Of a DNA stretch of 64,000 bases, positions 7,055 through 42,101 are shown piece by piece. Below the pieces are notes generated by a model. The model worked only from the letters and a program-made list of their open reading frames with translations. It did no database searches and was not told the DNA's origin. The translations under genes were made by a program, and so were the position numbers. Positions within the stretch are counted from its first letter, which is position 1. Every line of letters starts with the position of its first letter. Source of the DNA: Myxococcales bacterium. GTDB taxonomy: Bacteria; Myxococcota_A; Polyangia; Polyangiales; Polyangiaceae. The stretch spans positions 1-64,000 of the forward strand of contig CAHJWM010000004.1 of the NCBI GenBank assembly GCA_903642325.1. The letters run 5' to 3'.

Positions 7055-7176
7055 GCTCGTTCAGCGCGGCGCTATTCGAGAAGTCCGGCGCGCCTCCTAA
7101 CTGGGCTCGTGGTCCGGACGTGCGAGTCGCTGTTCCGCGCTTTAGCTCCGTGCGGACAAGTAGTACCGTCGAACCT

Positions 7177-7199: not shown

Positions 7200-7247
7200 G
7201 CCGAGCGCGGCCAACCCCACTCGGGGTCGAGCCAAAGGGGCCACAGG

Positions 7248-8696: not shown

Positions 8697-8811
8697 TCTG
8701 GCCGGGCTCGGTTGCACAATTCCCGGTCACGGCGAGCGCTGGGACAGCGGCGCGTTTCGAGCTATATGAGCGCGCGGCGCGGTCTCGCGCCAAAGCTCGC
8801 CTAGTAGGACC

Positions 8812-9555: not shown

Positions 9556-9606
9556 CTGGGTCGTTGCACGGTCGAGCGGTCGCAGGCGGCGAGCGCGTCG
9601 CCCGCC
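9537..9606. terminator. Two hairpins between convergent genes
   Basis: There is a perfect 10-bp inverted repeat, CGTGCAACGA (9537-9546) with TCGTTGCACG (9561-9570), straddling the stop of the HEAT gene. A second GC-rich stem lies at 9585-9606 (GGCGGCGA with TCGCCCGCC, one bulge). The location between facing genes suits bidirectional termination; there is no long U-tract. Confidence 0.5.
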
Positions 9607-9628
9607 ACTCGTCTCGACGACCGCGAGC

Positions 9629-10513: not shown

Positions 10514-10530
10514 GCCTCGCCCTTTGCCCA

Positions 10531-20392: not shown

Positions 20393-20397
20393 TGGCA

Positions 20398-23300: not shown

Positions 23301-24144
23301 CGCGCTCCTGGCGCGCGCGGACATCAAGCTCAACAAGGAAACCCTTGCCGTGCGCGAGTACAGAACGGTGGTTGGGCTCTGGGCGGATCCGAAGGCTGCG
23401 TCGGACAAGATCATGAACATTCCCGGCGAAGACGACGCCTCCAAACAGCGTCGTCTGGGCCGCGCCCTCGAGTCCGTGGGTGAGGGCATGTTTTACTTCG
23501 CGGACCTGGAGAAGGCGAAGGTGGACAAGCTGAAGTTCCCCGAATACCGCGGCAACAATTCCAAGGAAGATGTGCTGAAGCACATCAACACCAAGGTAAA
23601 GGACTGGATCGTCAAGAAGCGGCCGCTGATCGATAAGGCGAGCGGTGAGTACAAGAAGATCGTCGATTTGCAGCCGGTCCCGCCGCCGCGTTGGGTCATC
23701 GCCGCGGGCTCCCGCGTCGGTGAAATGTGGGGCACGTTCGTGAAGGAATTCCGCGCCGCGCCGATCCCGGATGCGTTCCGGAAGGACGTCGAGATTCGCC
23801 AGACCTACTATGCGAGCTTGGACGAGGCCTCGGAGCCACAAAAACAGCAGGCCAAGAGCGCTTTCGAGACCTGCCTGGGTTACTCGGTGAAGTACCAATA
23901 CTTCGACGAGTTCAGCCGCACTTGCGAAGAGTGGCTCGCTCAGAATTACAAGAACGAGTACCACTTGGTGGATGAGTTCCGCGGTTCGCCGAACCGGGTC
24001 AACAGCGTGCTGCTCGAGCAAGGTAACCCGCTCCGCATTGGCGGTGAGCCGATGATTACGCAGAGCGCAGAGCCCGCTGCCAAGAGGGACAACGCCTCGA
24101 GCTCGGACGATGCCGCAGCGAGCAAAGCCAAGGGCAAAAAGTGA
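20398..24144 (+). CDS. gltD: Large exported TPR protein, GltD/AgmU-like
   Basis: This 1248-aa protein has a signal peptide (AFVGITVAFGLLFSAATAVA) and an array of TPR/Sel1-like units, for example YYVLMKTDYPDYSKIDEVLY, YLAYEYEQGGDLKNARSTYLE and YARYKLGYVFWNKGEYANA. It ends in an Ala/Ser/Lys tail. Myxococcus AgmU/GltD, a periplasmic TPR protein of the adhesion-motility complex, is ~1200 aa and sits beside gltE, as here. ATG 20398 is chosen because GGAGGT (20385-20390) gives a 7-base spacing; ATG 20392, which overlaps the previous stop by one base, is too close. Translational coupling to gltC is likely. Confidence 0.75.
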   Translation: MSSKRAFVGITVAFGLLFSAATAVAITEAKPADLSAECIAPDAAKALSECPAGKMADVHSKRAAAFSSAPPPRDVKKRQDDSRPVNPEELTKYAERDTRKSRLQARARALLITEIQGLERLYRSTPKKSPDRPQLTRRLAEGYVELESAAQRDKIAADIAGQDAKKKGKPTAKFRSDAVAADKILAAARKSAINYYVLMKTDYPDYSKIDEVLYYLAYEYEQGGDLKNARSTYLELIQKAPKSPYIPNAYLAFGELFFQEAQGDPAKWDLSAAAYKEVIKYPPPTNKVYGYARYKLGYVFWNKGEYANALNEFKKVIEYGDTYGDLPNAKQLAKAARRDTIPVYAVSGDPSKAFNFFKPLSGDKGGETDKTVDMMNELGLAYLDTGHYKEGIVLYKDLLSRDPGDKSCFYQGQVTTASSALNSGDKDAIRKEMDAQVRVYNDFMKDKHAEASRLSCANKTAELLSETAMSWHLEAVGSGGVRGTGDKKTMDLAAYLYKKVADNFTSADFAKFEFPRIVKADWPTMYKIKYAMADLLYFQQRWEECGPAFDAVVAEDPKNEQAAEAAYASVLCYQKMYDQMYKGAADRKGKGLGPQGADEKDREAKAGEWEKFKPKPLTDMQKGMVNAFNRYVCYVKPPKGDKDAEEQYVEVKYARARTYFEAQHWEEAALAFRDVAINHADKDAGIYAAQLYLEAINVLGSRAEPPRPECFDEMGKDVPVFLDLYCKGSKAEDNKEQCETLNRIQFDIRRLKAQKLVELADQQQDKGDYKDALDSYKKGGDAYLDLWRSYCEDPLGKGDHPKQCEKADETVYNMARAYQAARLLAKSIQARLILLSSKYGMGDSPLAMKATYEIGGNYQAIAVYDKASDFFELYAKKTAYHGEFADQALSDAVVLRLGLGQEDQGIDDSNNFNKYFGARKPAQTAQIAYAIAAHYGEKKDWSNVQKRLGSSMRMIDSKATLDIIAQAHALLARADIKLNKETLAVREYRTVVGLWADPKAASDKIMNIPGEDDASKQRRLGRALESVGEGMFYFADLEKAKVDKLKFPEYRGNNSKEDVLKHINTKVKDWIVKKRPLIDKASGEYKKIVDLQPVPPPRWVIAAGSRVGEMWGTFVKEFRAAPIPDAFRKDVEIRQTYYASLDEASEPQKQQAKSAFETCLGYSVKYQYFDEFSRTCEEWLAQNYKNEYHLVDEFRGSPNRVNSVLLEQGNPLRIGGEPMITQSAEPAAKRDNASSSDDAAASKAKGKK

Positions 24145-24215
24145 GTCGGGGGGGCCACGCTCGAGGCTTCGCGCCTGGCCCTTTCCCGCCTCCCTCAGGA
24201 TTAAGGAGAGACCCG

Positions 24216-25691
24216 ATGACTGGTTTGAAAACGCTGTTGCTCGTGAGCTTTGCAACTCTGGCGGTTGCCTGTGGTGGCGGTGTGAAAGGCGAAGGCGCGC
24301 TCAGTCCGGACAAGGTGAGCGGCAAATCAGACCGACAGGGCCGGCAGGTCAGCAAGGCGGCCGCCCAGAATTTCGACGCAGCGCTCGACCAGTTCGCCGG
24401 TCACGACAAGAAGCAAGACTGGGACGACGCGGCGTGCACGTCGATCGCCAAGGCGTTCAACGATGCCGCAGATTCGCAGATGTCGGACACCAACCGCCCG
24501 TTTCCGGAGGCCCAATACAACGCCGGGCTAGCCTACCAACGCTGCGGCAAGGACGCGGAAGCGCGTTCCGAGTTCGAAGCGGTCGTGAAGTCCGACGCCT
24601 CTTTTCACCGCGCTCGTGCGCAGTTGGCGCTGTACGATTACGCAAAGTCCAACGACTTGGACGGGGCCATCTCCAAGCTCGATCAAATCATTCACGACGC
24701 GAAGTTCCAAAACGTCGAGGCCCTGGTCAGCTTGGCCGCGCTACAGATGGAGCGCGGCAACGATCAGACTGACCAAGACGGGAAGAACGACCTCGAGCGC
24801 GCGCAGCGTAATTTGCAGCGCGCGTTGGCCATCGACGACGGCTACATGCCGGCCTTCAACCAGCTCGCCGTCTACTACCTAACCCAGGCCAAGGCCAAGG
24901 CCGGGATGAGTGACAAGACGGGCAAGCGAGGTCGTCGAGGCATGGAAGTGTCAGGAGCTTCCAAAACCGACGTCGACGCCCAGCAGCTGGATTTGGCCGC
25001 CCTCGTTGCGGCGCAGGCGCAAAAGAAGAACCCGAACTACGCGCCAATCTCGAACACGACCGGTCTGATCCAAGTTCAGCTCAAGAACTTCAACGGCGCG
25101 GTGAAGAGCTTCGGCAAAGCTCGTCAACTGGACCCGACGTTCTTCGAGGCTCAGATGAACTACGCGGCGGTCAACCTTTCTTTCCGCGGCTACGAAGAAG
25201 CGGAGCGGGCGTACCGCGATGCGCTCAAGCTCCATCCCAAGGACTACGAAGCTCAGCTCGGGCTGGCGCTCGCGGTGCGCGGCGAGATCAGCGATGCGAA
25301 CTTCGACAAAAACGTAGACGAGGCGCAGCAGCACTTGGACGAAGCCAAAAAGCTCGCCCCAGATCGGCCCGAGACCTATTACAACGAGGCGATCCTAACC
25401 CAGGAATTTAGAGCCAAACGCGGCTCGCCAGTGCCGACCTTGAAGAAGGCGGCGGAGCAATACCAAACGTTCATCGACAAGGCAGGCGGCGATCCCGCCT
25501 TTGCCGCGGCGGTGAAGCGCTCCAAGGACCGCAGCCAAGACATAGCTGACACCGTCAAGTTCATCGAAGAGGGCGACCAGGCCGCCAAAGACGCCGCCGC
25601 AAATCCGCCACCCCCCCCAGCCGACGCCACCGCTCCCGGTACCAATACGCCGGCTGCTCCCGGCGCGAAGCCTAGCGACGCCAAGAAGTGA
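24216..25691 (+). CDS. gltE: TPR lipoprotein, GltE/AglT-like
   Basis: This 491-aa protein has lipobox LAVAC after a hydrophobic signal. TPR units follow, such as PEAQYNAGLAYQRCGKDAEA, GAVKSFGKARQLDPTFFEAQ and EAERAYRDALKLHPKDYEAQ. The C-terminus is a Pro/Ala/Asp tail. Myxococcus AglT/GltE is a TPR lipoprotein of ~500 aa downstream of agmU. A strong Shine-Dalgarno (AAGGAGAG) six bases upstream fixes ATG 24216. The 71-base gap after gltD is compatible with one operon. Confidence 0.75.
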   Translation: MTGLKTLLLVSFATLAVACGGGVKGEGALSPDKVSGKSDRQGRQVSKAAAQNFDAALDQFAGHDKKQDWDDAACTSIAKAFNDAADSQMSDTNRPFPEAQYNAGLAYQRCGKDAEARSEFEAVVKSDASFHRARAQLALYDYAKSNDLDGAISKLDQIIHDAKFQNVEALVSLAALQMERGNDQTDQDGKNDLERAQRNLQRALAIDDGYMPAFNQLAVYYLTQAKAKAGMSDKTGKRGRRGMEVSGASKTDVDAQQLDLAALVAAQAQKKNPNYAPISNTTGLIQVQLKNFNGAVKSFGKARQLDPTFFEAQMNYAAVNLSFRGYEEAERAYRDALKLHPKDYEAQLGLALAVRGEISDANFDKNVDEAQQHLDEAKKLAPDRPETYYNEAILTQEFRAKRGSPVPTLKKAAEQYQTFIDKAGGDPAFAAAVKRSKDRSQDIADTVKFIEEGDQAAKDAAANPPPPPADATAPGTNTPAAPGAKPSDAKK

Positions 25692-26114: not shown

Positions 26115-26186
26115 AGTGTGTTCGGGGCTTTGGCTCCTTCGATGGTCGGGGCGGTCGTCCCGGGTTTGCTTGGCAATCAGGAATAC

Positions 26187-28175
26187 ATGGCAAAAGCTGT
26201 ACTGACATTCGCGCTCTACCAGGGTGATGCTCTCACGCGCCGGGAAACCGTCACGCAGGACATCGTGAAAGTCGGCAAGGATCCGAAGAGCCACCTTCGC
26301 GTCGACGACGAGCAAGCCTCGCGCATGCACGCCGTGATCGAAGTTGCTGGTCCCGAAGACATCACTCTCATCGATCTCGGGAACGAGCCGGGCACGATGG
26401 TGAACGGCGCCCGAGTCAACAAGTGCAAGCTGCACGTGGGCGATCAGATCCAAGTGGGTCAGACGTACCTGGTCCTGGAGAGCGCGGATGCCGCTGGCGC
26501 CGAAGCCGTCGCCGCACCGCCGCCCGCCTTTGGCGGCGCCTCTAACCCGTTTGCGGTCTCGGCCTCGAGCCCGTTCGCGGCGGCAAGTAACCCGTTCGAG
26601 GTGCGTTCAGCGAATCCATTCGCGGCTGGCGCGGCGGCCACGGCGCGTGCTCAAGCCATGCATGTCGCGGACGACGCGCCTGCGGGGACGTACACCTACA
26701 CGATGATCAAGAGTGGCCCGGACGTGAGCTCGGACGAGGTCGAGATCGCGCACCTGCAATCAGTGGAGGTGATGATTCTATGGGGCTCCAATGTCCTGCA
26801 TGTCTCGCACCTGACGCCGCCACGCAATTTCTATGTCGGTGAGGAGCAGGGCAAGAATTTCGCGTGCGACTTTTTCATTCCCAGCGAGAAGCTCGGCACG
26901 ACCCGCTTACCGGTCGTGATTGGCGACCGCGCGTCAGTGGCGGTGGTCATTCCGCCGGGTGCACGGGGCTCGGTGGAGCTCCCTGGCATGCCGCGCATGT
27001 CGATGGATGAAGCGCGCCAGCGCGCCCAGCCGACTGCTGAGGTCAGTGGCGGACATCAGCTCAATTTGCCGAGCGGCGGCAAGGCACGCGTCGAGATCGG
27101 TGATTTCGTGTTCCAGGTCGCGGCCGTGAATGCCGGAAAACCGATCAAGCACGGCGTCGCGGTCGGCTTCGACTGGGGCGTTGCTATGTACTTTGGGCTA
27201 TCGCTGGCTGCTATCGGCGGACTGGTCGCCGCCATGGCGTTCTTCGTTCCCCCGCTGGGCTTGAACGATGACGAGGAGCTCGACAAGGACGCGCTGTATT
27301 TGATGCAGCAGTACCTGAAGTCAGCGGCCGAGCGCGAGCAGGAAGAGAAAGAGGCCGAGGTAGTTCAGGATAACTCGGACAACAAGGAAGGTGGCACCGG
27401 CACGCGCGCCAAAGGCGAGGAAGGGTCGATGGGTAACCCTACGACCAAGGCAGTGAACAAGCGCTATGCGGTTCAGGGTCCGAAAGACAATCCGGACCCG
27501 CACATCGCCCGCCAGGCCGCGCTGCGTGAGGCGGCCGAATTCGGCATGATTGGCCTGCTCAACACGGGCGCTGCCGGCGACCCGAATGCGCCAACAGCAC
27601 CTTGGGGCCGTGACACTTCGTCGGGGTCCGATGACGTGAGTGCGCGCGGTAACATGTGGGGCGATGAGATCGGCGATGCGTTTGGCGCGGGCGGCCTGGG
27701 CCTGTCAGGCATCGGCGAAGGCGGCGGCGGGCGCGGTGAGGGTATTGGTCTCGGTAATATCGGCACTTTGGGTCATGGAGCCGGCACGGGCACCGGCCAG
27801 GGCTTTGGGGCTGGGCACGGGCGACTCGGCGGTTCGCACCAGACCAAGGCTCCAAAGGTGCGTATGGGCGCGACTACCGTCAGTGGTCGCCTGCCGCCTG
27901 AGGTGATTCAGCGCATCGTTCGTCAGAACTACGGGCGCTTCCGAATGTGTTACGAGCAAGGGCTTGGGCGGAATCCAAACCTCGAGGGTCGCGTTTCTGC
28001 ACGTTTCGTGATTGGGCGAGACGGCGCGGTTTCGAACGCTTCGAACGGTGGTTCGGATCTGCCAGACAGCGGCGTGGTCAGCTGCGTGGTGTCTGCCTTT
28101 TACGGGCTTAGCTTCCCGCAGCCCGAAGGTGGCATCGTGACCGTCGTCTATCCGATCATGTTGTCGCCTGGCTGA
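26187..28175 (+). CDS. gltG: FHA - TM - AgmX/PglI C-terminal domain protein, GltG-like
   Basis: This 662-aa protein has an N-terminal FHA domain (~20-100; VGKDPKSHLRVDDEQASRMHAVIE, GTMVNGARV) able to bind phospho-Thr. A flexible segment with four [S/N]PF motifs follows (~120-150), then a second cytoplasmic beta domain, one TM helix (~330-355) and a Gly-rich periplasmic spacer. The C-terminal ~95 residues (PPEVIQRIVRQNYGRFRMCYEQ) form the AgmX/PglI (TonB-like) domain. This is the architecture of Myxococcus PglI/GltG, an inner-membrane link between cytoplasm and periplasm. ATG 26187 is preferred over GTG 26118 because CAGGA precedes it and the FHA fold begins soon after. Confidence 0.8.
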   Translation: MAKAVLTFALYQGDALTRRETVTQDIVKVGKDPKSHLRVDDEQASRMHAVIEVAGPEDITLIDLGNEPGTMVNGARVNKCKLHVGDQIQVGQTYLVLESADAAGAEAVAAPPPAFGGASNPFAVSASSPFAAASNPFEVRSANPFAAGAAATARAQAMHVADDAPAGTYTYTMIKSGPDVSSDEVEIAHLQSVEVMILWGSNVLHVSHLTPPRNFYVGEEQGKNFACDFFIPSEKLGTTRLPVVIGDRASVAVVIPPGARGSVELPGMPRMSMDEARQRAQPTAEVSGGHQLNLPSGGKARVEIGDFVFQVAAVNAGKPIKHGVAVGFDWGVAMYFGLSLAAIGGLVAAMAFFVPPLGLNDDEELDKDALYLMQQYLKSAAEREQEEKEAEVVQDNSDNKEGGTGTRAKGEEGSMGNPTTKAVNKRYAVQGPKDNPDPHIARQAALREAAEFGMIGLLNTGAAGDPNAPTAPWGRDTSSGSDDVSARGNMWGDEIGDAFGAGGLGLSGIGEGGGGRGEGIGLGNIGTLGHGAGTGTGQGFGAGHGRLGGSHQTKAPKVRMGATTVSGRLPPEVIQRIVRQNYGRFRMCYEQGLGRNPNLEGRVSARFVIGRDGAVSNASNGGSDLPDSGVVSCVVSAFYGLSFPQPEGGIVTVVYPIMLSPG

Positions 28176-28226: not shown

Positions 28227-28597
28227 CTGCATCGTGGCGGTTACGCCGCGAAAGGTAAGTTTAGAAGATGCGCGTCCGCGCGTGGGCGCTTCGCGTGTCG
28301 GGTGCTGTGCTACTCAGCGGGAACGCGCGAGGGGGCCATGCGAGTGGCGCTAAGCCGCGGCAAATGCAGGCTGAGCTCGGGCGCGAACTGCTTTACTCCA
28401 TGGCTCGCGTCCGCCTATGCTGCAAGCCTGTTTGACTGCCTGCGATGCGCGCAGGCGGTCGCGGTTTGAAAGTGCCTTGTCTCGCGCTTCATTCGTCTCA
28501 GCCTTGGCTCCTAACTTCGAGCGTTCTGCCTGCGAATTTTTGATTCTGCTGGTTGCGTCTCCCTATGCGTATTGACTGGAAAGAGGGAAAGCTTGCG
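28227..28597 (+). promoter_or_regulatory. Intergenic leader with a weak promoter before the second TPR lipoprotein
   Basis: No gene is visible in these ~370 bases. A -35-like TTGATT (28540-28545) and a poor -10 TATGCG (28564-28569) are 18 bases apart, ~30 bases before the start codon at 28598. A small hairpin (CCTGCG 28439-28444 with CGCAGG 28450-28455) is also present. Confidence 0.3.
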
Positions 28598-29512
28598 ATG
28601 AAACTCCTGAAGTCTTCTACGGTTTTCTTGATTGCCGCGGGTATCGCGAACGTCGTCTCGGGTTGCAGCCGTGACCGCATAGAGGCCATCAACCTGGCGA
28701 ACGAGGGCGATCAGTCGGTGAAGGTAAACGTGGAGGGGGCGATCCAGAAATACGAGCAGGCGATCGACCTGGACCCGACCAATCATCGCATCCTCTGGAA
28801 ATTGGCAAATGCGTACGAGAAGAAGGAGGATTGGGACAAGACGGCGTCCACGCTGGCTCGTGCCGTGCAAGTCGCTCCCGACTTTGCCAATTATTGGGGA
28901 GCTCGGGGCCATGCGTTGATCGAGCAGGCGCGAGCCGGCAACGCCGATGCCTACAAGCAGGCACAGGAGCCGCTGAAAAAATGCATCGAGAAGGATCCGA
29001 CCATCGCCGACTGCTACGACGACCTAGGTGATACGTACTTATGGACGGACGACGAGCAGAATGCGGCAGAAAACTACTCCAAGGCAATCGAGCACGACCC
29101 GAGCAAAGGTTACTTTTACACCGATCTGGCCGATCTATATTTGAACCTGAAACTCGTTAAAGAGGCCGAGCAGGTACTGAATGAAGGTGTCCGGCTCGTT
29201 CCGCCAAACGAGAAGAACAACCCGAAACTTTACAACATGCAGGTCTTGCTAGCGAAGGTCGCGCAGATGAAGGGCGACAAGGCTGGTCAATTGGCCGCGG
29301 TCGAAAAAGCAGAGCACTACACGAGCGATGCCCATCCGGAGTTTGCTTACGAGCTCGGCAGCACTTATGGCACGATGGATCCGCCCCAGAAAGAGAAGGC
29401 TCTTCGCCTCTTGAACCAATTCACCAAACGCGTGTGCAAGGGCGCGCAGGCGATGAAGTTCAAGGATGAGTGCGAGGAGACGTCGTCGTTGATCCAAAAG
29501 CTGGGATCTTGA
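28598..29512 (+). CDS. TPR lipoprotein in the glt-like block
   Basis: This 304-aa protein has a lipoprotein signal with lipobox VVSGC and TPR units throughout, for example GAIQKYEQAIDLDPTNHRIL, NAAENYSKAIEHDPSKGYFY and EAEQVLNEGVRLVPPNEKNN. The start at ATG 28598 follows GAGGG; the upstream 15 residues of the longer frame are not signal-like. It is smaller than the GltE-like lipoprotein and has no obvious one-to-one Glt partner that I recognise. Position and fold suggest a periplasm-facing scaffold acting with the same machine. Confidence 0.75.
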   Translation: MKLLKSSTVFLIAAGIANVVSGCSRDRIEAINLANEGDQSVKVNVEGAIQKYEQAIDLDPTNHRILWKLANAYEKKEDWDKTASTLARAVQVAPDFANYWGARGHALIEQARAGNADAYKQAQEPLKKCIEKDPTIADCYDDLGDTYLWTDDEQNAAENYSKAIEHDPSKGYFYTDLADLYLNLKLVKEAEQVLNEGVRLVPPNEKNNPKLYNMQVLLAKVAQMKGDKAGQLAAVEKAEHYTSDAHPEFAYELGSTYGTMDPPQKEKALRLLNQFTKRVCKGAQAMKFKDECEETSSLIQKLGS

Positions 29513-29718: not shown

Positions 29719-32700
29719 ATGGATCTAGAGCAGCGTTTGAAACAGCTTGAGAGCCAGCACGACTGGCATGGCATCGTCGAGGCCTTGGAGCAGGGCTTGG
29801 GCTCTACCCAGGATGCCACGCTGAAGGCTGACCTCCATCTGCGGTTGGGTCGAGTGCTCCATACGCAGTTTCTGCAAGGCGTGCGGGCGCTAAAGCATTT
29901 TCAGGACGCCTACAAGCTCAACCCGGCGCTGTTCGATGCACTGAGTGAGGCGCGCGCCATCTACTGGGAGCTGGGCAAGCTGAACATGGTTCAGAAGCTG
30001 CTCGAGCTTCAGCTGAAGAGCGCACCCAGTGCACGCGTGAAGAGCGCGCTATTTCGCGAGCTCGGCGATGTGTTGTGTGACGTCGCAGAATACGAACGCG
30101 CCGCCGAGTCATATGCAAAGGCGCTTCAAAACGCGGAAGGTACGCCCGGGGACCTCGGGGACCGCTTGCTCGACGTACAGGTTGGCGCAGACGAGTGGCA
30201 GGAGCGTATCGCGGCCTTACTGCGCGCTGCGCACGAAGCGGCGACGCCCGCGGAGAGCTCGACTACCTTTTTGCGTGCCGCGCGCATCGCTCGCCGGTTT
30301 GCGCCCACCGATTACGAGGGTGTCCTCGCGCAGGCCTATGCGGCGGATCCGGGTAACAAGAGCGCCGCGGCTTTGTACGAGGGCCTTCTCGTCGAAGCGC
30401 AACGCACCGAAGCCATTTTGGACACTCAGCGCGAGGCGTTGAAGCGCATCGACGCGCCCGTTGCGAAGGCCGACGCCTCGTTTCGTTTCGGCGCACGCTG
30501 GGCACTCAGGCACCAAAATCTCGATGTCGGCAGTCAGTTCTTGGAAGAAGCGCTGAGGCTCGACCCTAGCCGAGAGCCAGCGTTCACCTTTCTGAAGGAC
30601 GCCATTGGGGTGCGGGGCGGTGAGTGGGAGCGGGTCGTTCGCTTGGCGGACGAGCTGGCCGACCGAGCGGGTGTGTCCGAATCGGCGAGCTACCTGCTGG
30701 CCAGCGGCGGTCTCATCGCATGGCGCGAGCAAGGCGATCTGATCCGCGCCCGGAAGTTCTTCGAGCGGCTGAGCCGCGTGTCTCCTGCCCATCCTGCGCT
30801 TCTGGCTTTCGAGGCTCAGATCGGGCAGCAGCTTCCCGCCGGCGTGGTGGCGTCGCGTGCTGACACAGAAACCGGCGTGTCGCAGGCGGCGCCTGCCCCG
30901 ACGCCGGAGGTGCTGACGCCGGATGCCGTGACGCCGGAGATTGAGTATGCGGAGGAGGACGCCGAGCTGGAAGTGATTCCGCCCTCCGAACCGCCGTCCC
31001 CCGTCCCTGTCCCTGTGTCGGCGGTGACCATTGCGGTATCCGCTGCGAAGGCTGCGCCAGCGTCACTGCGCTCGGCGAGCGCGACGTCGGCGCACCCTCC
31101 CGCTGCAGCTCCGACTGCGTCCACGGCGCAAGTCAATGCGAGCGGAGGAGCAGACCCCTCGTTGATCGCGTCGCTGCGTGAAAAGCTCGCCCAGCAAGAG
31201 GCCGCCAAACGCTTCAACGAGTATGTGAAGACCCTCGTGGCTTTGGGGGACGCGGTTTCGGAGCCAGCGGAGAAGGCTGAGCTCTATGCCAAAGCGGCAG
31301 ACCTATACGTCAGCAAGTTCGCCAATCAGGCGGAAGCGGTGCGCGCCTACGAAAAAGTGCTCGAGGTCGCTCCCAACCAACCTGCAGCCAGCGCTTACTT
31401 GCGAGAGATGTACGAGAAGCGCCGGGACTGGGAAAAGCTGATTCAACTAAGCGTCCGCGAAGCAAGCGCACTTCCCGCGGGCGCCGAACGCGCGGCCAAG
31501 TACAAGCAGATCGCGCTTTTGGCCACGGAGCGCGTAAAAAAGCCCGAGGTCTGCATCGATCTCTGGGCCGTCGTGTTGGACAACGATCCAGATGACGTCG
31601 ACGCGTTGAACGCGCTTTCTCAACTGTACGAGCGCTCACGCGATTACGTAAAGCTCGCCGACGTCTTGGCACGGCTAGCAGACCTCACTTACGACATTGC
31701 GGCCAAAATCGAGATTCTGAACAAACTCGGTCAGGTCGCGGGCGACCGGCTGAAGGACGAAGAGCGCGCGGTCGACGCCTATCGCGCGCTGCTCACGCTC
31801 CAGCCTGACGACCGCCGTGCCCAGGAACAGCTGAAGAAACGCTACGTGACGCTCGGTCGCTGGGACGATTTGGAAGTCTTCTACGCCGACACGGGCAAGT
31901 GGGACGAGTTCATCCGCGTGCTGGAGAGCAATGAGGCGCGCGCCACCGACACTGCCCAGCGCATCGGCATGATGATGAAGATCGCCGAGCTCTGGATGAC
32001 CCAAAAGGGCAAACCGGATCGTGCCGCCAAAGCGTACGAGAAGGTGCTTAGCTTCGATGAGCACAACCTTGCCGCTGCCGAGCGATTAATCCCGCTATAT
32101 ACCTCCGCAAACAACCCCAAAGGGTTAGCGACGGCAATTGAGGTCAAGCTCGGTCACGTGCAGCGTCCGGAGGACGCCTTGAGCTTGCTCCGCGAAGTGG
32201 CCGGGCTATACGACTCGCGCATCAACGACAAGGCGAAAGCTTTCGACCGCTACTTGGCCGCGTTCAAGCTCGCGCCGGCCGACGCGCGAAGCCAGTCCGA
32301 TATGGAACGGGTGGCGCAGGTGACCGCTCGTTGGGAGGACGTAATCGCGGCGTATCGCGGCGCTGTGAGCACCGCGGACGATCAAGGAGACACGGCGGTT
32401 GCGAACGCGCTGCGCTTACGCTTGGGGCGCGTGTACGTGGAAGAGACGGAGCGCGTCGACGACGCGCTCGCCGAGTACCGCTCGGTATACGAGAGCGAGC
32501 CGGACAACCAGGTCGCGCTGAGCGCATTGGAGCGGCTGTATCGCCAGACTGCTCGCTGGCGCGACCTGCTCGATGTGTACGGCAAGAAGCGTGAGCTTGC
32601 CGACGCGCCGCGTGAACGGAAGCAGATCTTGTATGAGATCGCCAAGCTGTACGAAGTGCAGATCGGCGACCCGAAGGCGGCAATCGAGACGTACCAGGCG

Positions 32701-35700
32701 GTGCTCGAGGACGACCCGGCGGATTCGGCAACGCTGGCCGCGCTCGACGCGTTGTACCAAAAGACCAAGAGCTGGGAACCGTACGCGGAAGTGCTTCGTC
32801 GACGCATCGAGCTCGAGGGCGACGAGCGCGTGCTCGTCGACCTGAAGTTCAGGCTAGCGCAAACCGAGCTCGAGTACTTGGGCGACGAACCGGGGGCCCT
32901 CGAGAACTATCGCGAGATCTTGCAGATCGACGCGGACCATGAAGGCGCGCGCGTCGCCCTGGAGGGCATGCTCACGAGTGAGTCACTCGGCGCTGAGGCG
33001 GCCGCAATCTTGGAAACCATTTACGAGGCGCGGGGGGATTGGGAGAAGCTGATCGGCGCGCTAGAGATCCTCGCCCTGAGCGACTCGCAGCTCGACCGTC
33101 GCGTGTACTTGCTGCGTAAGATCGCCGCCACTGCCGGAACCGAGCTGGGCTCGCTCGACCGAGCGCTCGACGCGCAAGCGCGCGCGCTCAAGGAAGACCC
33201 TTCGCAAGCCGAAACGTTGCTCGAGCTCGAGCACCTGGCCGGCCAGGCCGGCGCGTGGGACAAGCTCCGCGGGATTTACAATGAGGTTGCAGGCTCGCTC
33301 GACGAGCCCGCGCTGGCCCGGCAGTATTGGATGCGTCTGGCGGCAATCGAGGAGCGTTTGGGCAAAGTCGAGCAGGCCGCCACCAGCTACGAAAAGGTGC
33401 TCAAGCTGGACCCGTCTGACGCCGAGGCCCTGCGAGCGATGGATGCCCTCTACCGAGGCACCGGGCATTGGGAAGACCTCATTGGCGTATTTCGGAGGCG
33501 CATTGGGCTCACCCAGGAGGGCCCGGAGACCGAGGCGGTTTATGCGCAAATGGCGCAGATTTACGAGGAAAAACTAGGCAAGCCGAACGAAGCCATCGCG
33601 GCCTACCGCGAAGTGCTGGCGAGCGATCCCACGAGCCACGTCGCGCTCGACGCCCTGGACGGCTTGTTCACCCGGCGCGGTCTGTGGAACGAGCTGGCCG
33701 ACAACCTCGACACTCAGTTGGGCCTAGCCCAAACCGACGATGCGCAACGTGATCTGATGCTGCGCCTGGCGTTCCTACGTGAGCGCCAGATGGGTCAGAC
33801 CGAAGCGGCAATCGAGGGTTATCGACAGGTGCTCGACCGCGACCCGACGAATGCCACCGCGCTCGGTGCCTTGGAACGTCTTTCGAGCGACGGCCGGCAT
33901 TCGCTGGCCATCGCCGAAATTTTGGAGCCGTTGTACCGAAGCCAAGGGGACTACCAAAAGCTGATTGGGGTGCACGAGGTTCAAGTCAGCCAAGCGGACG
34001 AACCGTCACGCAAAGTGGAGCTGCTGCATCAAATTGCGGCATTACACGAGGACGCAGCGGGTGACGTAAACGCTGGCTTCGACACCTTGGCGCGTGCGCT
34101 GGCCGTCGACCCGTCGCACGAAGAAACGCAAACGGGCCTGGATCGCTTGGCCCGCGTCACCGGTCGGTTCCAAGACTTGGCACGGGTCTTCGAGCAGCTC
34201 GCCGTTACTCAAAAAGACCCAGAGCTCGGCAGCCGGCTCTACTCGTCGGCCGCAGGCGTGTATGAAAACTTGGTCGGTGACGGTGACCGCGCGATCGAGC
34301 TTTACCGCAAGGTGCTCAGCATCGATCCGGCCAATTTGAGCGCGGCCGATTCCCTGCAGACGTTGTTCCAGAGCGCCGAGCGCTTTGCGGACATGTCGCT
34401 GATCCTGCAACGCAAAGCCCAGGTTTTGGAGGATGTCGAAGCGCAAAAGGCGGCCCTGTACCAGGCGGCGACGCTCGAACAGGAAGTGCTCGAGCGTCAG
34501 GAAAATGCGATTGGCGTGTACTTGAAGATTCTGGAGATTGACCCCGAGGATCTGCGCAGTATCGACGCGTTGATAGAGCTCTACCTCGGCCTTTCGCGTT
34601 GGGAAGAGCTACTGTCCGTCTACTCGAAGAAGGCGGACTTGGTCCTCGACACCGAGGAGAAGAAGCTCATTTTTTACCAGGTCGGCGCGGTGTACGAGCG
34701 AGAGCTCTCGGACGTCAGGCGTGCAATCGACACCTATCAGAAGGTGCTCGAGCTGGACCCAGACGACCTCACGGCCCTCAGTCGTTTGGACGTGCTCTAT
34801 CAAAGCGCGGGAAACTGGCGGGAGCTGCTCAGCATTCTGCAGCATGAAGCGGAGCTCACGGCCGACCCAGCCGAAGCCGTTAGCTACCAATATCGGATCG
34901 CAGAGCTGTACGAGCGTCACCTGGACGACATCGATCGTTCGGTCGAGCTCTATCGCGAGATCTTGAACATTCAGTCGGAGCACGCGCCGACGCTGGCCGC
35001 GCTCGAGGGCATTAAAGATGGCAAGCGCGCGCCGCTCGCCGCCGCTTCCGTGCTCGAGCCGGTTTACGACGCGCTCGGCGATTATCAAAAGCTCATCAGC
35101 GTGCTCGAGGTGCAGGTTCGCTTCAGCGCCGACGCGTTCGCCAAAGTGGAGCTCTTACACCGCATTGCGCGGCTGTACGAAGAGAGCCTGGGCGATCGTG
35201 GCCGCGCGTTCGAGACTTATGCGCGAGCCATTGGGGTCGACAGTCAGAACGAAGAAGCGCTCGGATCGCTCGAACGGTTGGCCATGACGCTCGACCGTTG
35301 GCCAGCGGTCGCCGCCTTGTACGACGCGGAGCTCGACAAGCTCGAGGCGGACCCAGATCGCTTCGTGGAGCTCGGGCTGCGCGCAGCTCAGGTGTACGAG
35401 GTGCAACTAGAGAATTTGGACAACGCGGTAGTGCGTTATCGGCGCGTGCTGGCCGCCGACCCTGACAATCAGGTAGCGGTGCGCTCGCTCGATCGCTTGT
35501 TCACGCACTTGGAGCGCTGGCCGGACTTGTCGGAGATCCTCACGCGCGAATCCGAGATCGGCCAGAGCCCAGACGAGATTTTGGAGTTCAAGTATCGCCT
35601 GGGTCAAATTTACCAAGCACGCCTGGGCGATCTGGACCAAGCCATCACCGCCTATCGCGAGGTGATCAGCGCGGCCCCCGAGCACGAAAATACCCGCAAG

Positions 35701-38700
35701 GCACTCGAGGCCCTGTTCGAGAACGGAACGAAACAGCTCGAGATCGGCGAGATCTTAGAGCCACTGTATCAGGGCTCGGGCGAGTGGGAAAAACTCATTC
35801 GTGTGCGCGAGGCCTCGCTATCGCACACGACCGATCCGGATGAGCGAATCGCGCTCTTTCACCGCATAGCCGAAGACGCGGAAGAGCGACTGCTCGATCC
35901 GGTACTTGCCTTTGGCGTGCACGTGCGTGCCATCAAGGAGAGCCCCCTCGACGAGCGAGCCAGCGAGGAAATCGAGCGCCTGGCCAGCATGCTCGACGGT
36001 GGCTGGGAATCGCTCGCCAACGCTTACGCAGACGTGCTGGGGGTCGAAGGTCTCGAAGGGGCCACGCAGGCCATCATCGGCAAGCGCCTGGCGCGCGTTT
36101 TCGAAGAAGAGCTCGCCGATGTGGTCAAGGCCGAGGAGACGTATCGCTACGTGCTCACGGTCGCGCCGCGCGAACGCGACGCGCTCGCGAACCTAGATCG
36201 CATCTACACGTCTCTCGAGCAGTGGCCGGAGCTCGCGGGCGTGCTCGAGCAGCGCGCCGCGTCCGCGGAGGACGACCACGAGCGGGTCGAGCTCTATACG
36301 CGTCTGGGGCAAGTGTACGAGGAGCAACTCACGCAGACCGAGGACGCCGTACGTGCCTACCGCGTCATCTTCGACAAGCTCGCTCCTTCGAACGAGGATG
36401 CGATCCGGGCCCTCGGTCGCATCTACGAGCAGACAGAGGCTTACAGCGAGCTTGCCACGGTCTACCAACGCGAGCTCGAGAACGCCGGCGGCGATGTTCA
36501 GGAGGCCGAAATACGCGCGAAGATCGCCCACTTGGCGGCGACGCGCCTCGGCAACGTCGAGGGCGCTATCGAGGGCTGGAAGCGAGTGCTGGATCTGCGC
36601 GGTGAGGATCCGGAGGCGCTTGCCGCGTTGGCCGGGTTGTACGAGCGCCAAGAGAAGTGGGCCGAGCTGACCGATGTGCTCGAGCGTCACTTCGACATCG
36701 CGGAGTCCGATGAAGATAGAGTCAACGTGCTCACTCGGCGCGCCCGCTTGTTCGCCGAGCGCCTGAACCGCGACGACGAGGCGCTCGAGACCTGGCAACG
36801 CGTGCTCGACATCGATTTTTCGAACATTGCGGCCCTGCGAGCGGTCGCCCAAGTCTGGCGAGCCCGGCAGGACGCGAACGAGCTGGTGAATGCGTTGCAC
36901 GCCACGATTGATCGCGCGGCTGCGCTGCTCGAGCCGGCAGAACTGAAGGGAGTCTACCGGGAGCTCGGTCAGACGTATGGTTCGTCCTTGGCGCAGCCGT
37001 TCGATGCCGCCGAAGCTTGGCGTCACCTGCTCGAGGTCGACCCGACGGACTTCGAGGCAATGGCCGAGTTGGAAGCCATTTACCGCGCCGAAGAGCGCTG
37101 GGTAGAGGTGATTGGCGTGAAGATGCAACGGGCAGACGCGCTGCAAGAGCCGAGTGAGCGGGTGCGCGAGCTACTCGAAACGACCGAGATTTGGAAAAAA
37201 GACGTCAACGAATATGACTCTGCGACGCCGGCCTTCGAAAAGATCTTGCGCATCGAGCCGGCGCATCAGGAGTCGTTCGAGGCGCTGGAACGGCTGCACG
37301 GCGCCGCCGGCCGCTGGGAAACGCTGGTCGAGCTCTATCTCAATCGGCTGGAGACCCGCGAGTCGACTCAGGACAGGAACGAGATATTGCGCCGGATTGC
37401 GCGGGTCTTCGAAGAACACTTGGACGACAAGAACCAAGCCTTCGACGCCCTCGTCAATGCCTTCAGCGAAGATTTCAGTGATGACGAGACTTCTCGTTAC
37501 CTCGAACGCATGGCGCAAGCCACGGGCCGTTGGGGCGAGCTGATCAATACCGCCAACGCCTGGTTGCCGGAACAATCCGACGACAAGCAAAAGATCCAAC
37601 TCTGCCTGCGGCTCGGCAAGTGGTACGGCGAGGACCTCGGTCACCCGGAGTACGCACAGCCGTACTACCAACAGATCATGGCGCTCGACCCGAACAACGT
37701 TCAGGTCCTACGCCAAATGGCCGCGATTCATCGCATGAGTGCGCAGTGGCAAAAAGTTGGCGAAACGCTGACTCGCGCGCTGGACGTCGCCACCGCCAAC
37801 GACGATCGCAAAGCCATCTTGGTCGACCTCGGTGAGCTCTTGTACAAGAACATGGGTCAAGCCGACCAGGGCATCGCGTTCTACAAGCGCGCGCTGGAGG
37901 TTGACCCGCATCATGTTCAAGCTCTGACCGCGCTGGAACGCATCTACGACGAGCGCTCGAATTACGACGACCTAGTCGACATCCTGAGGGCGAAGGTGCA
38001 GGCGCTGAGCGAGCCCGCGCAGATCGCTTCGACCAAGCTGCGCATGGCCACGTTGTACGAGACGACGCTCGGCGATTTCGACCGCGCAGGCAAAGTGTAC
38101 CGTGAGGTGGTCGAGATCGATGGTCGCAATGTGCTTGCCCTGCGCGGTCTGGAGCGCATTTATCAAACCACCCAGTCCTGGGCGGATTTGGTGGGAATTC
38201 TCGAGCGTCAGTTGGACGTGGTCGAGACGGAGCGCGAGCACGTCGAAGTGTTGCTGAAGCTCGCGGGCATCCAGGAGGAACACTTCCTGAGATTCGAAAT
38301 TGCGGCGCAACGGCTGGAGCAAGCGCTCGAGATATCGCCCGGGGAAGAACGCGCTTACATCGCGCTCGAGCGTTGCTATCGCCGCCTCAAGCAGTGGCGC
38401 GATCTGATCAGCACCTACGAGAGGCACATTAGCGAGGCCGCGACCACCAGCACCAAGGTCGAGCTCTACGGATTGATCGCCGCTGTCTATGCCGAGGAAG
38501 TCGGGGACGTGGACCGGGCGGTCGACGCTTACCGCAATATCGTCGACGTGGACGACAGCAATGTGCCGGCGCTCGAAGCGCTGAGCAAGTTGTACGAGAA
38601 GCAGGGCGACGCGGCCCAAGCGATCGAGTCCATGACGCGTGTCGCGGACCTAACCGCTGACGGTAATCAGCGCGTCGAGATGTACTACCGCATCGGCAAG

Positions 38701-41175
38701 GCGCTCGAGGACAAGCTCGGCGACCGCGGCCAAGCGCAAGAGCGCTTCGAGATGGCCCTCGATCTCGATCCGACGCACTTGCCGTCGCTGGCCGCGCTCC
38801 GCACGATCGCCATCGACGAATCTGACTGGGATCGCGCCGGCCGTTACCTCGAGCAAGAACAGCTGAATACGCCGACGCCGCGGGCGCGCGCAAAATTGCT
38901 GGTCGAGCTTGGCAAGCTGCGTGACGACATGCTCGGCGAGCACGAGCTCGCGCTGCAGGCGTACGAGCTCGCGATGCAGTGCGATGCGGACTGCGAAGAG
39001 GCGGCGTTGCCCCTCGTCCAAGAGTACCTCCGGGTCGAGCGCTTTTCGGACGCCGAACCGCTGGCGGAGATGCTGGTTCGCAAGAGCAAGAACAAGGAGC
39101 GCACCGAGCAGCACGCTCTATACAAATTGCTTGGCAAGGTCCAGGCCTCGCTCGGCAACAACGAAAAGGCGCTCAAGGCTTATCAAACCGCGAACGGCTT
39201 GGATCTGACCGACCAAGAAACGATTCGCGGCATTGCGGACGTGGCCTTCCAATTGAAGGATTGGCCGAGCGCGCTCACTAATTATCAGAAGGTCTTGACT
39301 GCTCTCGCCGAGGACGACACCGAACGGCGTACGGACGTTTATTACCGACTCGGCTGCATCAAGCGCGAACAAGGTCAGGCCAAACAGGCCATCAACAACT
39401 TCGAAAAGGCGCTGGGCCTGAACGGCGAGCACCGTCCGACGCTCGATGCACTCGTCGCCATCTACGCTGCGGGCAACGACTGGAAGCAGGTCGCCGCCTA
39501 CAAGCGCCAAATCTTGGACGGCGTCTACGATGGCGAAGAGCGCTACAAGGTGTTGAACGAAATCGGCGACATCTGGAGTGAACGCGAGAAGAATCCGCAA
39601 AAGGCGATCGAGGCTTTGGAGGAGGCTCGCGACCTCAAGCCGCAAGATCACGTACTTTTACACAAGCTTTTGCAGCTCTACCAATCGGCCGCCGACTGGC
39701 AAAAGATGGTCGACACGCTGCAGGCAATTGCCGACGACGAGGATCGCCGCGAGATCAAGGCTCGCTACATTTTCACGCAGGCGCAAATCTACCGCGATAA
39801 GATCGAGGATCCCGACCGTGCCGTGGAGCTATTCAACGAGTCGCTCGACCTCAACCCGAACTACCTAGAAGCCTTCGAACGCATCAACAAGGTGCTGACG
39901 CAGCAGAAGAACTGGAAACAGCTCGAGCGCGCCTATCGGAAAATGCTGCACCGCATTGCGGGCAAGGGCAACGCTGAGCTCGAGCACACGCTCTGGCATC
40001 AGCTCGGCCTCATTTACCGCGACCGCCTTCAGCAAACGGATCCTGCGATCGAAGCGTTCAAAATGGCCTCGAGCAACAAGCCCGACGCCGTCGTGGTGCG
40101 CCAGATTTTGGCCGAGCTGTACGAGGTCGGCGAGCGCTGGGACGAGGCAATCAGCGAACAACGCGCCATTCTCGAAGCAGAGCCGCTGAAGATCGACTCG
40201 TACCGTTCCTTGTATCGGCTGTATCTGCAGAAACAAGGATATGACGAGGCGTGGTGCCTGGCCGCGGCCATGGCCTTCATGAAAAAGGCCGACGAAGAGG
40301 AGCAGCGTTTCTTCGAGGACTATCGCCCGCAAGGCATGCTGCCCGTGAAGGGCCGCTTGTCGAACGAGCTATGGGTCAAGCAAGTTTTTCATGCGGACGA
40401 GAACCTTTACATCTCGAAGATTTTCGAAATGATCGCTCCGGCGGCGCTGCAGGCCAAAATTGCACAGCTACAGGCGCAGGGTAAGCCGCCCGTGCTCGAC
40501 AAACGCTTTCGTCAGGATCCTGGTACATCGACCGTCACCTTCGCAAAAACTTTTGGCTGGGCCGCCCAAGTGCTCGGTGTGCAGGCGCCGGAGCTGTACG
40601 TCCGTAACGACGTGCCCGGTGCAATCGTGGCAGTGCCGTCGAATCCACCGGCCTCGGTCGCGGGTCAAACGGTGCTCACCGGCTTCCAGCCGCAGGAGCT
40701 CACCTTCATGTGCGGCAAGCACTTGTCGCACTATCGCGGCGAGCACTACATCCGCACGCTCTTTCCGACCCACGCCGAGCTCACCATCATGCTGTTTGCG
40801 GGCGTGATGTTGGCGGCTCCGAGCACCCCCATGCCGCAAGACATGGCGGCCCAAATCCGTGCCACCGCGCAAGAGCTGGCGAAATACATGCAGCCCGTGC
40901 AACTCGAAGGGCTACGCCTGGTGGTGAAACGCTTCATCGATGAAGGCGCCAAGGCCAACATCAAGCGCTGGAATCAGGCGGTCGAGCTCACGGCCTGCCG
41001 CGCTGGCTTGATTGTATGCGGCGATCTCGAGATTTCGCGCAAGCTGATTGGTGCAGAGGCGCCGTTGCCTGGCGACTCAACGGCCGCGGACAAGATGAAG
41101 GAGCTTTTGCTGTACTTCGTCAGCGAACAATATTCCGAGGTGCGGCGCGCGCTCGGCATCGCAATCGCGGTTTGA
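29719..41175 (+). CDS. gltI: Giant TPR protein, GltI/AgmK-like, with M48-pseudopeptidase-like C-terminus
   Basis: This 3818-aa protein has no signal peptide or TM helix, so it is cytoplasmic. Residues ~1-385 are TPR-like; ~385-475 is a Pro/Ala/Ser linker. A very long array follows, of ~71-72-residue double hairpins marked by W..L at the start and ALxxLxxLY at the end. The last ~250 residues differ: CGKHLSHYRGEH (~3665-3676) and ELTACRAGLIVCGD (~3756-3769) align with the HExxH and SADRAGL regions of M48 metallopeptidases but lack the catalytic Glu and Asp. Myxococcus AgmK/GltI is a TPR protein of almost the same length, which together with the neighbours supports the call. The start follows GAGGGA. 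Confidence 0.8.
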   Translation: MDLEQRLKQLESQHDWHGIVEALEQGLGSTQDATLKADLHLRLGRVLHTQFLQGVRALKHFQDAYKLNPALFDALSEARAIYWELGKLNMVQKLLELQLKSAPSARVKSALFRELGDVLCDVAEYERAAESYAKALQNAEGTPGDLGDRLLDVQVGADEWQERIAALLRAAHEAATPAESSTTFLRAARIARRFAPTDYEGVLAQAYAADPGNKSAAALYEGLLVEAQRTEAILDTQREALKRIDAPVAKADASFRFGARWALRHQNLDVGSQFLEEALRLDPSREPAFTFLKDAIGVRGGEWERVVRLADELADRAGVSESASYLLASGGLIAWREQGDLIRARKFFERLSRVSPAHPALLAFEAQIGQQLPAGVVASRADTETGVSQAAPAPTPEVLTPDAVTPEIEYAEEDAELEVIPPSEPPSPVPVPVSAVTIAVSAAKAAPASLRSASATSAHPPAAAPTASTAQVNASGGADPSLIASLREKLAQQEAAKRFNEYVKTLVALGDAVSEPAEKAELYAKAADLYVSKFANQAEAVRAYEKVLEVAPNQPAASAYLREMYEKRRDWEKLIQLSVREASALPAGAERAAKYKQIALLATERVKKPEVCIDLWAVVLDNDPDDVDALNALSQLYERSRDYVKLADVLARLADLTYDIAAKIEILNKLGQVAGDRLKDEERAVDAYRALLTLQPDDRRAQEQLKKRYVTLGRWDDLEVFYADTGKWDEFIRVLESNEARATDTAQRIGMMMKIAELWMTQKGKPDRAAKAYEKVLSFDEHNLAAAERLIPLYTSANNPKGLATAIEVKLGHVQRPEDALSLLREVAGLYDSRINDKAKAFDRYLAAFKLAPADARSQSDMERVAQVTARWEDVIAAYRGAVSTADDQGDTAVANALRLRLGRVYVEETERVDDALAEYRSVYESEPDNQVALSALERLYRQTARWRDLLDVYGKKRELADAPRERKQILYEIAKLYEVQIGDPKAAIETYQAVLEDDPADSATLAALDALYQKTKSWEPYAEVLRRRIELEGDERVLVDLKFRLAQTELEYLGDEPGALENYREILQIDADHEGARVALEGMLTSESLGAEAAAILETIYEARGDWEKLIGALEILALSDSQLDRRVYLLRKIAATAGTELGSLDRALDAQARALKEDPSQAETLLELEHLAGQAGAWDKLRGIYNEVAGSLDEPALARQYWMRLAAIEERLGKVEQAATSYEKVLKLDPSDAEALRAMDALYRGTGHWEDLIGVFRRRIGLTQEGPETEAVYAQMAQIYEEKLGKPNEAIAAYREVLASDPTSHVALDALDGLFTRRGLWNELADNLDTQLGLAQTDDAQRDLMLRLAFLRERQMGQTEAAIEGYRQVLDRDPTNATALGALERLSSDGRHSLAIAEILEPLYRSQGDYQKLIGVHEVQVSQADEPSRKVELLHQIAALHEDAAGDVNAGFDTLARALAVDPSHEETQTGLDRLARVTGRFQDLARVFEQLAVTQKDPELGSRLYSSAAGVYENLVGDGDRAIELYRKVLSIDPANLSAADSLQTLFQSAERFADMSLILQRKAQVLEDVEAQKAALYQAATLEQEVLERQENAIGVYLKILEIDPEDLRSIDALIELYLGLSRWEELLSVYSKKADLVLDTEEKKLIFYQVGAVYERELSDVRRAIDTYQKVLELDPDDLTALSRLDVLYQSAGNWRELLSILQHEAELTADPAEAVSYQYRIAELYERHLDDIDRSVELYREILNIQSEHAPTLAALEGIKDGKRAPLAAASVLEPVYDALGDYQKLISVLEVQVRFSADAFAKVELLHRIARLYEESLGDRGRAFETYARAIGVDSQNEEALGSLERLAMTLDRWPAVAALYDAELDKLEADPDRFVELGLRAAQVYEVQLENLDNAVVRYRRVLAADPDNQVAVRSLDRLFTHLERWPDLSEILTRESEIGQSPDEILEFKYRLGQIYQARLGDLDQAITAYREVISAAPEHENTRKALEALFENGTKQLEIGEILEPLYQGSGEWEKLIRVREASLSHTTDPDERIALFHRIAEDAEERLLDPVLAFGVHVRAIKESPLDERASEEIERLASMLDGGWESLANAYADVLGVEGLEGATQAIIGKRLARVFEEELADVVKAEETYRYVLTVAPRERDALANLDRIYTSLEQWPELAGVLEQRAASAEDDHERVELYTRLGQVYEEQLTQTEDAVRAYRVIFDKLAPSNEDAIRALGRIYEQTEAYSELATVYQRELENAGGDVQEAEIRAKIAHLAATRLGNVEGAIEGWKRVLDLRGEDPEALAALAGLYERQEKWAELTDVLERHFDIAESDEDRVNVLTRRARLFAERLNRDDEALETWQRVLDIDFSNIAALRAVAQVWRARQDANELVNALHATIDRAAALLEPAELKGVYRELGQTYGSSLAQPFDAAEAWRHLLEVDPTDFEAMAELEAIYRAEERWVEVIGVKMQRADALQEPSERVRELLETTEIWKKDVNEYDSATPAFEKILRIEPAHQESFEALERLHGAAGRWETLVELYLNRLETRESTQDRNEILRRIARVFEEHLDDKNQAFDALVNAFSEDFSDDETSRYLERMAQATGRWGELINTANAWLPEQSDDKQKIQLCLRLGKWYGEDLGHPEYAQPYYQQIMALDPNNVQVLRQMAAIHRMSAQWQKVGETLTRALDVATANDDRKAILVDLGELLYKNMGQADQGIAFYKRALEVDPHHVQALTALERIYDERSNYDDLVDILRAKVQALSEPAQIASTKLRMATLYETTLGDFDRAGKVYREVVEIDGRNVLALRGLERIYQTTQSWADLVGILERQLDVVETEREHVEVLLKLAGIQEEHFLRFEIAAQRLEQALEISPGEERAYIALERCYRRLKQWRDLISTYERHISEAATTSTKVELYGLIAAVYAEEVGDVDRAVDAYRNIVDVDDSNVPALEALSKLYEKQGDAAQAIESMTRVADLTADGNQRVEMYYRIGKALEDKLGDRGQAQERFEMALDLDPTHLPSLAALRTIAIDESDWDRAGRYLEQEQLNTPTPRARAKLLVELGKLRDDMLGEHELALQAYELAMQCDADCEEAALPLVQEYLRVERFSDAEPLAEMLVRKSKNKERTEQHALYKLLGKVQASLGNNEKALKAYQTANGLDLTDQETIRGIADVAFQLKDWPSALTNYQKVLTALAEDDTERRTDVYYRLGCIKREQGQAKQAINNFEKALGLNGEHRPTLDALVAIYAAGNDWKQVAAYKRQILDGVYDGEERYKVLNEIGDIWSEREKNPQKAIEALEEARDLKPQDHVLLHKLLQLYQSAADWQKMVDTLQAIADDEDRREIKARYIFTQAQIYRDKIEDPDRAVELFNESLDLNPNYLEAFERINKVLTQQKNWKQLERAYRKMLHRIAGKGNAELEHTLWHQLGLIYRDRLQQTDPAIEAFKMASSNKPDAVVVRQILAELYEVGERWDEAISEQRAILEAEPLKIDSYRSLYRLYLQKQGYDEAWCLAAAMAFMKKADEEEQRFFEDYRPQGMLPVKGRLSNELWVKQVFHADENLYISKIFEMIAPAALQAKIAQLQAQGKPPVLDKRFRQDPGTSTVTFAKTFGWAAQVLGVQAPELYVRNDVPGAIVAVPSNPPASVAGQTVLTGFQPQELTFMCGKHLSHYRGEHYIRTLFPTHAELTIMLFAGVMLAAPSTPMPQDMAAQIRATAQELAKYMQPVQLEGLRLVVKRFIDEGAKANIKRWNQAVELTACRAGLIVCGDLEISRKLIGAEAPLPGDSTAADKMKELLLYFVSEQYSEVRRALGIAIAV

Positions 41176-42011: not shown

Positions 42012-42101
42012 GGGCGCCTTGTTAGCACCCGTCGACGGCTCACGAAACCCCCGCGGAAACTTTGCCACAACCGGGGCCGGGCTCGAGCCGATGGACGCCG
42101 C

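What the first reader, a model, noticed from the sequence alone, without database searches (positions are those of the whole stretch)
40500..41175. Giant TPR protein ends in an M48-like pseudopeptidase
The C-terminal ~250 residues contain CGKHLSHYRGEH where M48 proteins have HExxH, and ELTACRAGLIVCGD where they have a zinc-site ExxxADRAGL. The catalytic Glu (here L or S) and the Asp are gone, while spacing and flanks remain. A dead protease fused to a ~3500-residue TPR solenoid suggests a binding module; I know of no description of this for AgmK-type proteins.
Basis: partly seen in the sequence, partly recalled or inferred. Interest (0 to 1): 0.78.

Follow-up and report, generated by a model that had tools for sequence, protein, structure and literature searches.

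The report
Dead-protease cap on gliding-motor scaffold
The giant repeat protein of the myxobacterial gliding machinery ends in a domain that descends from an M48 zinc protease but has lost its zinc-binding and catalytic residues; this dead-protease cap is conserved across the phylum and probably serves as a docking module.

Summary
The 3,818-aa TPR protein (29719-41175) is, by synteny with gltC/E/G, the gliding scaffold GltI/AgmK. Its last ~275 residues match no Pfam, NCBIfam or PDB sequence, but: (i) AlphaFold2 (pLDDT 91) gives a fold whose 16 best VIA-align PDB matches are all M48/M56/selecase-type zincins; (ii) a profile of the family aligns to active 'HECGH...ITCDRAG' M48 peptidases of the same bacterial family (hhalign 96%, E 2.5e-9; shuffled controls at most 2.7%) with both motifs in register. 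No member found has HExxH. The module occurs in 147 of 284 genomes of the phylum, almost always at the extreme C-terminus of TPR proteins, including a Ser/Thr kinase-TPR paralog. Best reading: an M48-derived pseudopeptidase used as a C-terminal binding cap, with a Lys/Arg-Glu/Asp pair in place of zinc. Fold and dead active site are well supported; binding role and salt bridge are inference. The M. xanthus protein itself was not examined.

The parts
29719..41175 (+). GltI/AgmK-type giant TPR protein, 3818 aa
   Evidence: ORF; TPR families throughout; gltC, gltE-like and gltG upstream
40342..41172 (+). C-terminal pseudo-M48 domain, residues ~3542-3818
   Evidence: conserved unit, AF2 pLDDT 91.3 / pTM 0.89, M48-type fold matches, profile alignment to M48
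40690..40728 (+). helix 117-129 of the model, at the place of the M48 active-site helix (HExxH)
   Evidence: DSSP of model; aligned with 'EELxxVIGHECGH' of active M48
40717..40719 (+). K3667, at the position of zinc ligand His1; K or R in 43 of 46 diverse members
40720..40722 (+). H3668, at the position of the catalytic Glu; Glu in only 3 of 46 diverse members
40729..40731 (+). H3671, at the position of zinc ligand His2; His in only 9 of 125 members, usually Tyr/Leu
40984..40986 (+). E3756, at the position of the third zinc ligand Glu; E or D in 43 of 46 diverse members
40996..40998 (+). C3760, at the position of the Asp of ExxxD; Asp in 4 of 46 diverse members
41143..41145 (+). R3809, the one column invariant in all 46 diverse members; possibly the Arg of the M48 'HPx4R' plug (HP itself absent)
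   Evidence: equivalence to the plug Arg is inferred from spacing and not aligned by hhalign
18599..20392 (+). gltC homolog
   Evidence: NF033756 gliding_GltC, E 1.7e-88, below curated cut-off
20380..24144 (+). TPR protein, 1254 aa, at the place and of the size of GltD/AgmU
   Evidence: TPR/YbgF-type matches; position; GltD identity inferred
24141..25691 (+). gltE-like TPR protein
   Evidence: NF033758 gliding_GltE best match, E 6.5e-24, below cut-off
26118..28175 (+). gltG homolog (FHA + AgmX/PglI C-terminal domain)
   Evidence: NF033760 E 9.7e-95 (below cut-off) and NF033768 above cut-off; FHA
28553..29512 (+). small TPR protein directly upstream of gltI

Best explanation
The C-terminus of this GltI/AgmK-type gliding scaffold is an M48-derived pseudopeptidase. 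It keeps the M48 core (helix, three short strands, active-site-type helix, second helix with the former ligand Glu) but cannot hold catalytic zinc in the M48 way, because zinc ligand 1 is Lys/Arg, the catalytic Glu is replaced and ligand 2 is not conserved. A basic residue at ligand 1 facing a retained acidic residue at ligand 3 probably makes a salt bridge that stabilises the cleft in place of zinc. The domain closes the end of the TPR solenoid, and its former substrate cleft or edge strand most likely binds a segment of a partner of the gliding machinery, so that the ~3,500-residue solenoid of GltI can be anchored or regulated at one end. Shown computationally: homology, fold, loss of catalytic residues, conservation and synteny. 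Inferred: salt bridge, cleft binding, cytoplasmic location, partner.
For: Fold: the top 16 VIA rows (Z 5.4-8.2) are all M48, M56/BlaR1 or selecase-type zincins, among them Ste24p, ZMPSTE24, BepA and 3c37 (182 of 222 residues aligned); the top viral-library match is annotated M48, prob 1.00. Homology: hhalign 96.2%, E 2.5e-9 against the HECGH/ITCDRAG M48 class; 20 shuffles at most 2.7%, reversed 0.2%. The family HMM itself hits active M48s L144, L148 and others (E 3e-13, 1.5e-11 in a small set) over both motif regions. Dead site: no HExxH in any of 125 members nor in 20 further distant ones; K/R with E/D in 42 of 49 non-redundant sequences. Conservation: domain 65% mean pairwise identity against 62% for the preceding 300 TPR residues, higher in 80% of pairs. 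Spread: 147/284 genomes of the phylum, 56/57 of a second class, with a gltG match 11-20 kb upstream on the same strand in more than 40 genomes (read together). Cytosolic setting of a paralog: Pkinase-TPR-pseudo-M48 protein L197. Literature: GltI with GltG described as intracellular scaffold coupling Agl motors to MreB (PMC13104615).
Against: No plain sequence search links the domain to M48. Foldseek E-values against PDB are weak (best 0.2) and a VIA Z of 7-8 alone is within the range the tool calls middling. hhalign to other M48 subfamilies is not significant (4%). In the longer model the sheet region is poorly predicted (pLDDT about 50).
Confidence: 0.72

Rival explanations
1. The domain is M48-derived and dead, but has no binding function of its own: it is only a structural cap that shields the hydrophobic end of the TPR solenoid.
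For: It sits at the extreme C-terminus of TPR proteins of many kinds, with tails of 0-17 residues in most; it is shared between proteins with different N-terminal parts, including a kinase, which argues against one specific ligand.
Against: Conserved polar positions (K/R, E/D, R, H) lie at the former active site; other TPR proteins are capped by a single helix rather than a 275-residue domain (general knowledge). Some distant members have 180-215 residues after the domain, so it is not always terminal.
Confidence: 0.17
2. The domain still binds a metal through a non-canonical site (for instance H3668, H3676, E3756) and acts as a metal-dependent sensor or binder.
For: H at the catalytic-Glu position in 20 of 46, H at the GEH position in 28 of 46 and E/D at ligand 3 in 43 of 46 diverse members.
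Against: Neither His is conserved across the family, and K/R at ligand 1 would repel a cation.
Confidence: 0.07
3. The resemblance is convergent: an unrelated helical domain that happens to carry two M48-like strings.
For: No Pfam, NCBIfam or PDB sequence match; weak Foldseek E-values.
Against: Profile alignment far above shuffles and in register over both motifs; top structural matches are nearly all zincins; HMM hits on active M48s.
Confidence: 0.04

Closest known systems
M48 peptidases, HECGH/ITCDRAG subclass of about 300 aa (e.g. L148, L136; PF01435)
   Same: Active-site helix register EL-x5-[HK], second helix W-x3-AE-[LI]-T-x-x-RAG; best profile match
   Different: Active members have HExxH, ExxxD and HPx4R; this family has none of the three complete, and has an insertion between the two motif helices (89 against 46-49 residues)
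BepA (E. coli M48 + TPR protein)
   Same: Combination of an M48-type domain with TPRs in one chain; appears among the structural matches
   Different: BepA is an active, zinc-bound periplasmic protease with N-terminal M48 and a short C-terminal TPR (PMC7950410); here a long N-terminal TPR solenoid and a dead C-terminal M48-type domain
GltI/AgmK of Myxococcus xanthus
   Same: Giant TPR protein of the gliding G1 cluster with gltD-gltG (PMC3169522); similar size

Membership tests
Peptidase family M48 (active peptidase) | HExxH motif on the active-site helix | tested here: not met
   KHLSH in this protein; no HExxH in 125 family members nor in 20 distant ones
Peptidase family M48 (active peptidase) | Third zinc ligand Glu in ExxxD on the following helix | tested here: inconclusive
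   Glu kept (E3756; E/D in 43 of 46), Asp lost (Cys; Asp in 4 of 46)
Peptidase family M48 (active peptidase) | HPx4R active-site plug motif (PMC7950410) | tested here: not met
   HP absent; an invariant Arg follows S-[ED]-x-Y-x-x-L at a comparable distance, but the plug is not aligned by hhalign
M48 superfamily as homolog (pseudopeptidase) | Profile homology to M48 with motif helices in register | tested here: met
   hhalign 96.2%, E 2.5e-9, controls at most 2.7%; HMM hits on active M48s
M48 superfamily as homolog (pseudopeptidase) | M48-type three-dimensional core | tested here: met
   AF2 pLDDT 91.3; leading matches are M48/M56-type zincins, Z up to 8.2; prediction only
Pfam PF01435 Peptidase_M48 | Score above the curated cut-off | tested here: not met
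   no Pfam hit at E up to 5 for the domain
GltI/AgmK | Giant TPR protein in the gliding G1 cluster with gltD, E, G | tested here: met
   gltC, gltE-like and gltG homologs directly upstream in the window; gltG 11-20 kb upstream in more than 40 genomes
GltI/AgmK | Sequence similarity to M. xanthus MXAN_4863 | not tested

The most novel reading that the evidence does not exclude
Myxococcota evolved, from a soluble M48 peptidase, a large family of dead-protease caps in which a Lys/Arg-Glu/Asp salt bridge replaced the catalytic zinc, and spread it to the C-termini of many TPR scaffolds and a Ser/Thr kinase as a common docking device; in GltI it is a missing contact point of the gliding motor.
Probability: 0.45. 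Interest if true: 0.72.

Novelty: new variant of a known kind. Interest (0 to 1): 0.58.

Why it matters
GltI/AgmK is the largest part of the myxobacterial gliding machinery and one of its least understood. A discrete, conserved, foldable end domain gives a concrete target for deletion, pull-down and structure work. The family also shows a route from zinc protease to non-catalytic module on a phylum-wide scale, in a domain that Pfam and NCBIfam do not yet name.

Tried and rejected
Direct searches of Pfam, NCBIfam, PHROGs and PDB sequences gave nothing for the domain. hhalign against a mixed set of other M48 subfamilies was not significant, so the link runs through one M48 subclass. A longer model with the last TPRs had a poor sheet region and was not used for fold search. 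Looked for family members with an intact HExxH as intermediates: none found. Tried to identify a Myxococcus genome by GltG above its cut-off: none in the genomes held. Alignment of R3809 with the M48 plug Arg: suggestive spacing only, not taken as shown. Papers held (PMC open licences only) gave no description of this domain; subscription papers were not searched.

Full report
Observation. The window holds one ORF of 3818 aa at 29719-41175 (+). Pfam and NCBIfam see only TPR-type repeats in the protein, and nothing in the last ~260-320 residues; phmmer against PDB chains gives nothing.

Identity of the host protein. Directly upstream, on the same strand, lie homologs of gltC (NF033756, E 1.7e-88), a 1254-aa TPR protein of GltD size, a gltE-like protein (best match NF033758), gltG (NF033760, E 9.7e-95; FHA plus the AgmX/PglI C-terminal domain) and a small TPR protein. 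In M. xanthus the G1 cluster is gltD-E-F-G-H-I-J with gltI = agmK (PMC3169522). Scores to the NCBIfam equivalogs are below their cut-offs, as may be expected far from Myxococcus. The protein is therefore GltI/AgmK by synteny and architecture. The same order (gltG 11-20 kb before the domain, same strand) is seen in more than 40 genomes when searches are read together.

Distribution. 50 loci in named genomes, nearly all labelled Myxococcota, Myxococcales or Polyangiaceae. A profile of 31 rows (A1) finds the module in 147 of 284 genomes of the phylum, in every listed genome of the window's own family (22), order (22) and class (15). A broader profile (A2, 46 diverse rows) finds it in 56 of 57 genomes of a second class, up to ten copies per genome. 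Open frames range from GltI-like (about 3300-4700 aa) through about 1600-2000 aa to about 450-1400 aa. It is almost always the last thing in the protein; some distant members have 180-215 further residues. The window's own genome has four more copies, on open frames of 1593-1889 aa; one is a Ser/Thr kinase-TPR-pseudo-M48 protein.

Fold. AlphaFold2 on A1 gave pLDDT 91.3, pTM 0.89, with helix 66-78, three short strands, helix 117-129, and helix 207-226. Foldseek's best PDB entries include ZMPSTE24 and BepA with weak E-values. VIA-align puts Ste24p (Z 8.2), 3c37 (Z 7.8, 182 of 222 residues), ZMPSTE24, BepA, BlaR1 and jannalysin/selecase in ranks 1-16, all zincins, with HtpX and aminopeptidase-type zincins further down. 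In the viral library the top match is an M48-annotated protein. Single Z values are middling, but the list is almost purely one superfamily.

Homology. M48 peptidases of the window's family were collected. One subclass of ~300 aa reads EELxxVIGHECGHIHNxHVVYLT...WSRRAEITCDRAGLLC. hhalign of A2 with this subclass gives 96.2%, E 2.5e-9, score 69.3; 20 column shuffles reach at most 23.8 (2.7%), reversal 14.8. The alignment puts ELTFMCGKHLSHYRGEH on ELxxVIGHECGHIHNxH and WNQAVELTACRAGL on WSRRAEITCDRAGL. The family HMM alone also hits these active peptidases over both regions (best E 3e-13 in a small set). Other M48 subclasses give no significant match.

Active site. By this register zinc ligand 1 is Lys3667, the catalytic Glu is His3668, ligand 2 is His3671, ligand 3 is Glu3756 and the ExxxD Asp is Cys3760. 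Across 46 diverse members the ligand-1 column is K/R in 43 and His in 3; the Glu column is Glu in 3; ligand 3 is E/D in 43; the Asp column is Asp in 4. Ligand 2 is His in 9 of 125. None has HExxH. K/R with E/D occurs in 42 of 49 non-redundant members, which suggests a salt bridge in place of zinc; this is inference, as coordinates could not be read.

Constraint. The domain is at least as conserved as the TPRs before it (65% against 62% mean pairwise identity, higher in 80% of 378 pairs), so it is not decaying.

Mechanism. BepA, an M48-TPR protein, contacts immature LptD through an edge strand and promotes its maturation as well as its degradation (title and abstract of PMC8423444), a precedent for an M48 domain that binds. 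[quoted passage not shown] The most likely role is a C-terminal docking cap. A pure structural cap is the main rival.

Novelty. Pseudopeptidases and M48-TPR proteins are known kinds; a phylum-wide family of dead M48 caps on TPR scaffolds, including the gliding scaffold, has no Pfam or NCBIfam entry and was not found in the papers held. Subscription literature was not searched.

Noticed in passing
L197:148-5481 (-) (window's genome, contig C7): 1778-aa open frame with an N-terminal Ser/Thr kinase domain, TPRs and a C-terminal pseudo-M48 cap; its motif reads TADRAGF, i.e. keeps the Asp of ExxxD.
   Followed up: partly
L198:914-5692 and 5605-11223 (+): Two adjacent paralogs (1593 and 1873 aa open frames, overlapping ends) both ending in a divergent pseudo-M48 module.
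   Followed up: partly
L103 (G236:C24:229800-232300): A second frame with the same module lies directly after gltI in this genome: a tandem copy.
   Followed up: no
window 41742-43433 (+): FHA-domain sigma-54 activator shortly downstream of gltI, a possible regulator of the cluster.
   Followed up: no
window 54383-56635 (+): PrkA-type serine protein kinase gene.
   Followed up: no
L191, L192 (G257:C10, G252:C772): Giant frames of 3387 and 3472 aa in which the module is followed by about 200 further residues, so it is not always terminal.
   Followed up: no
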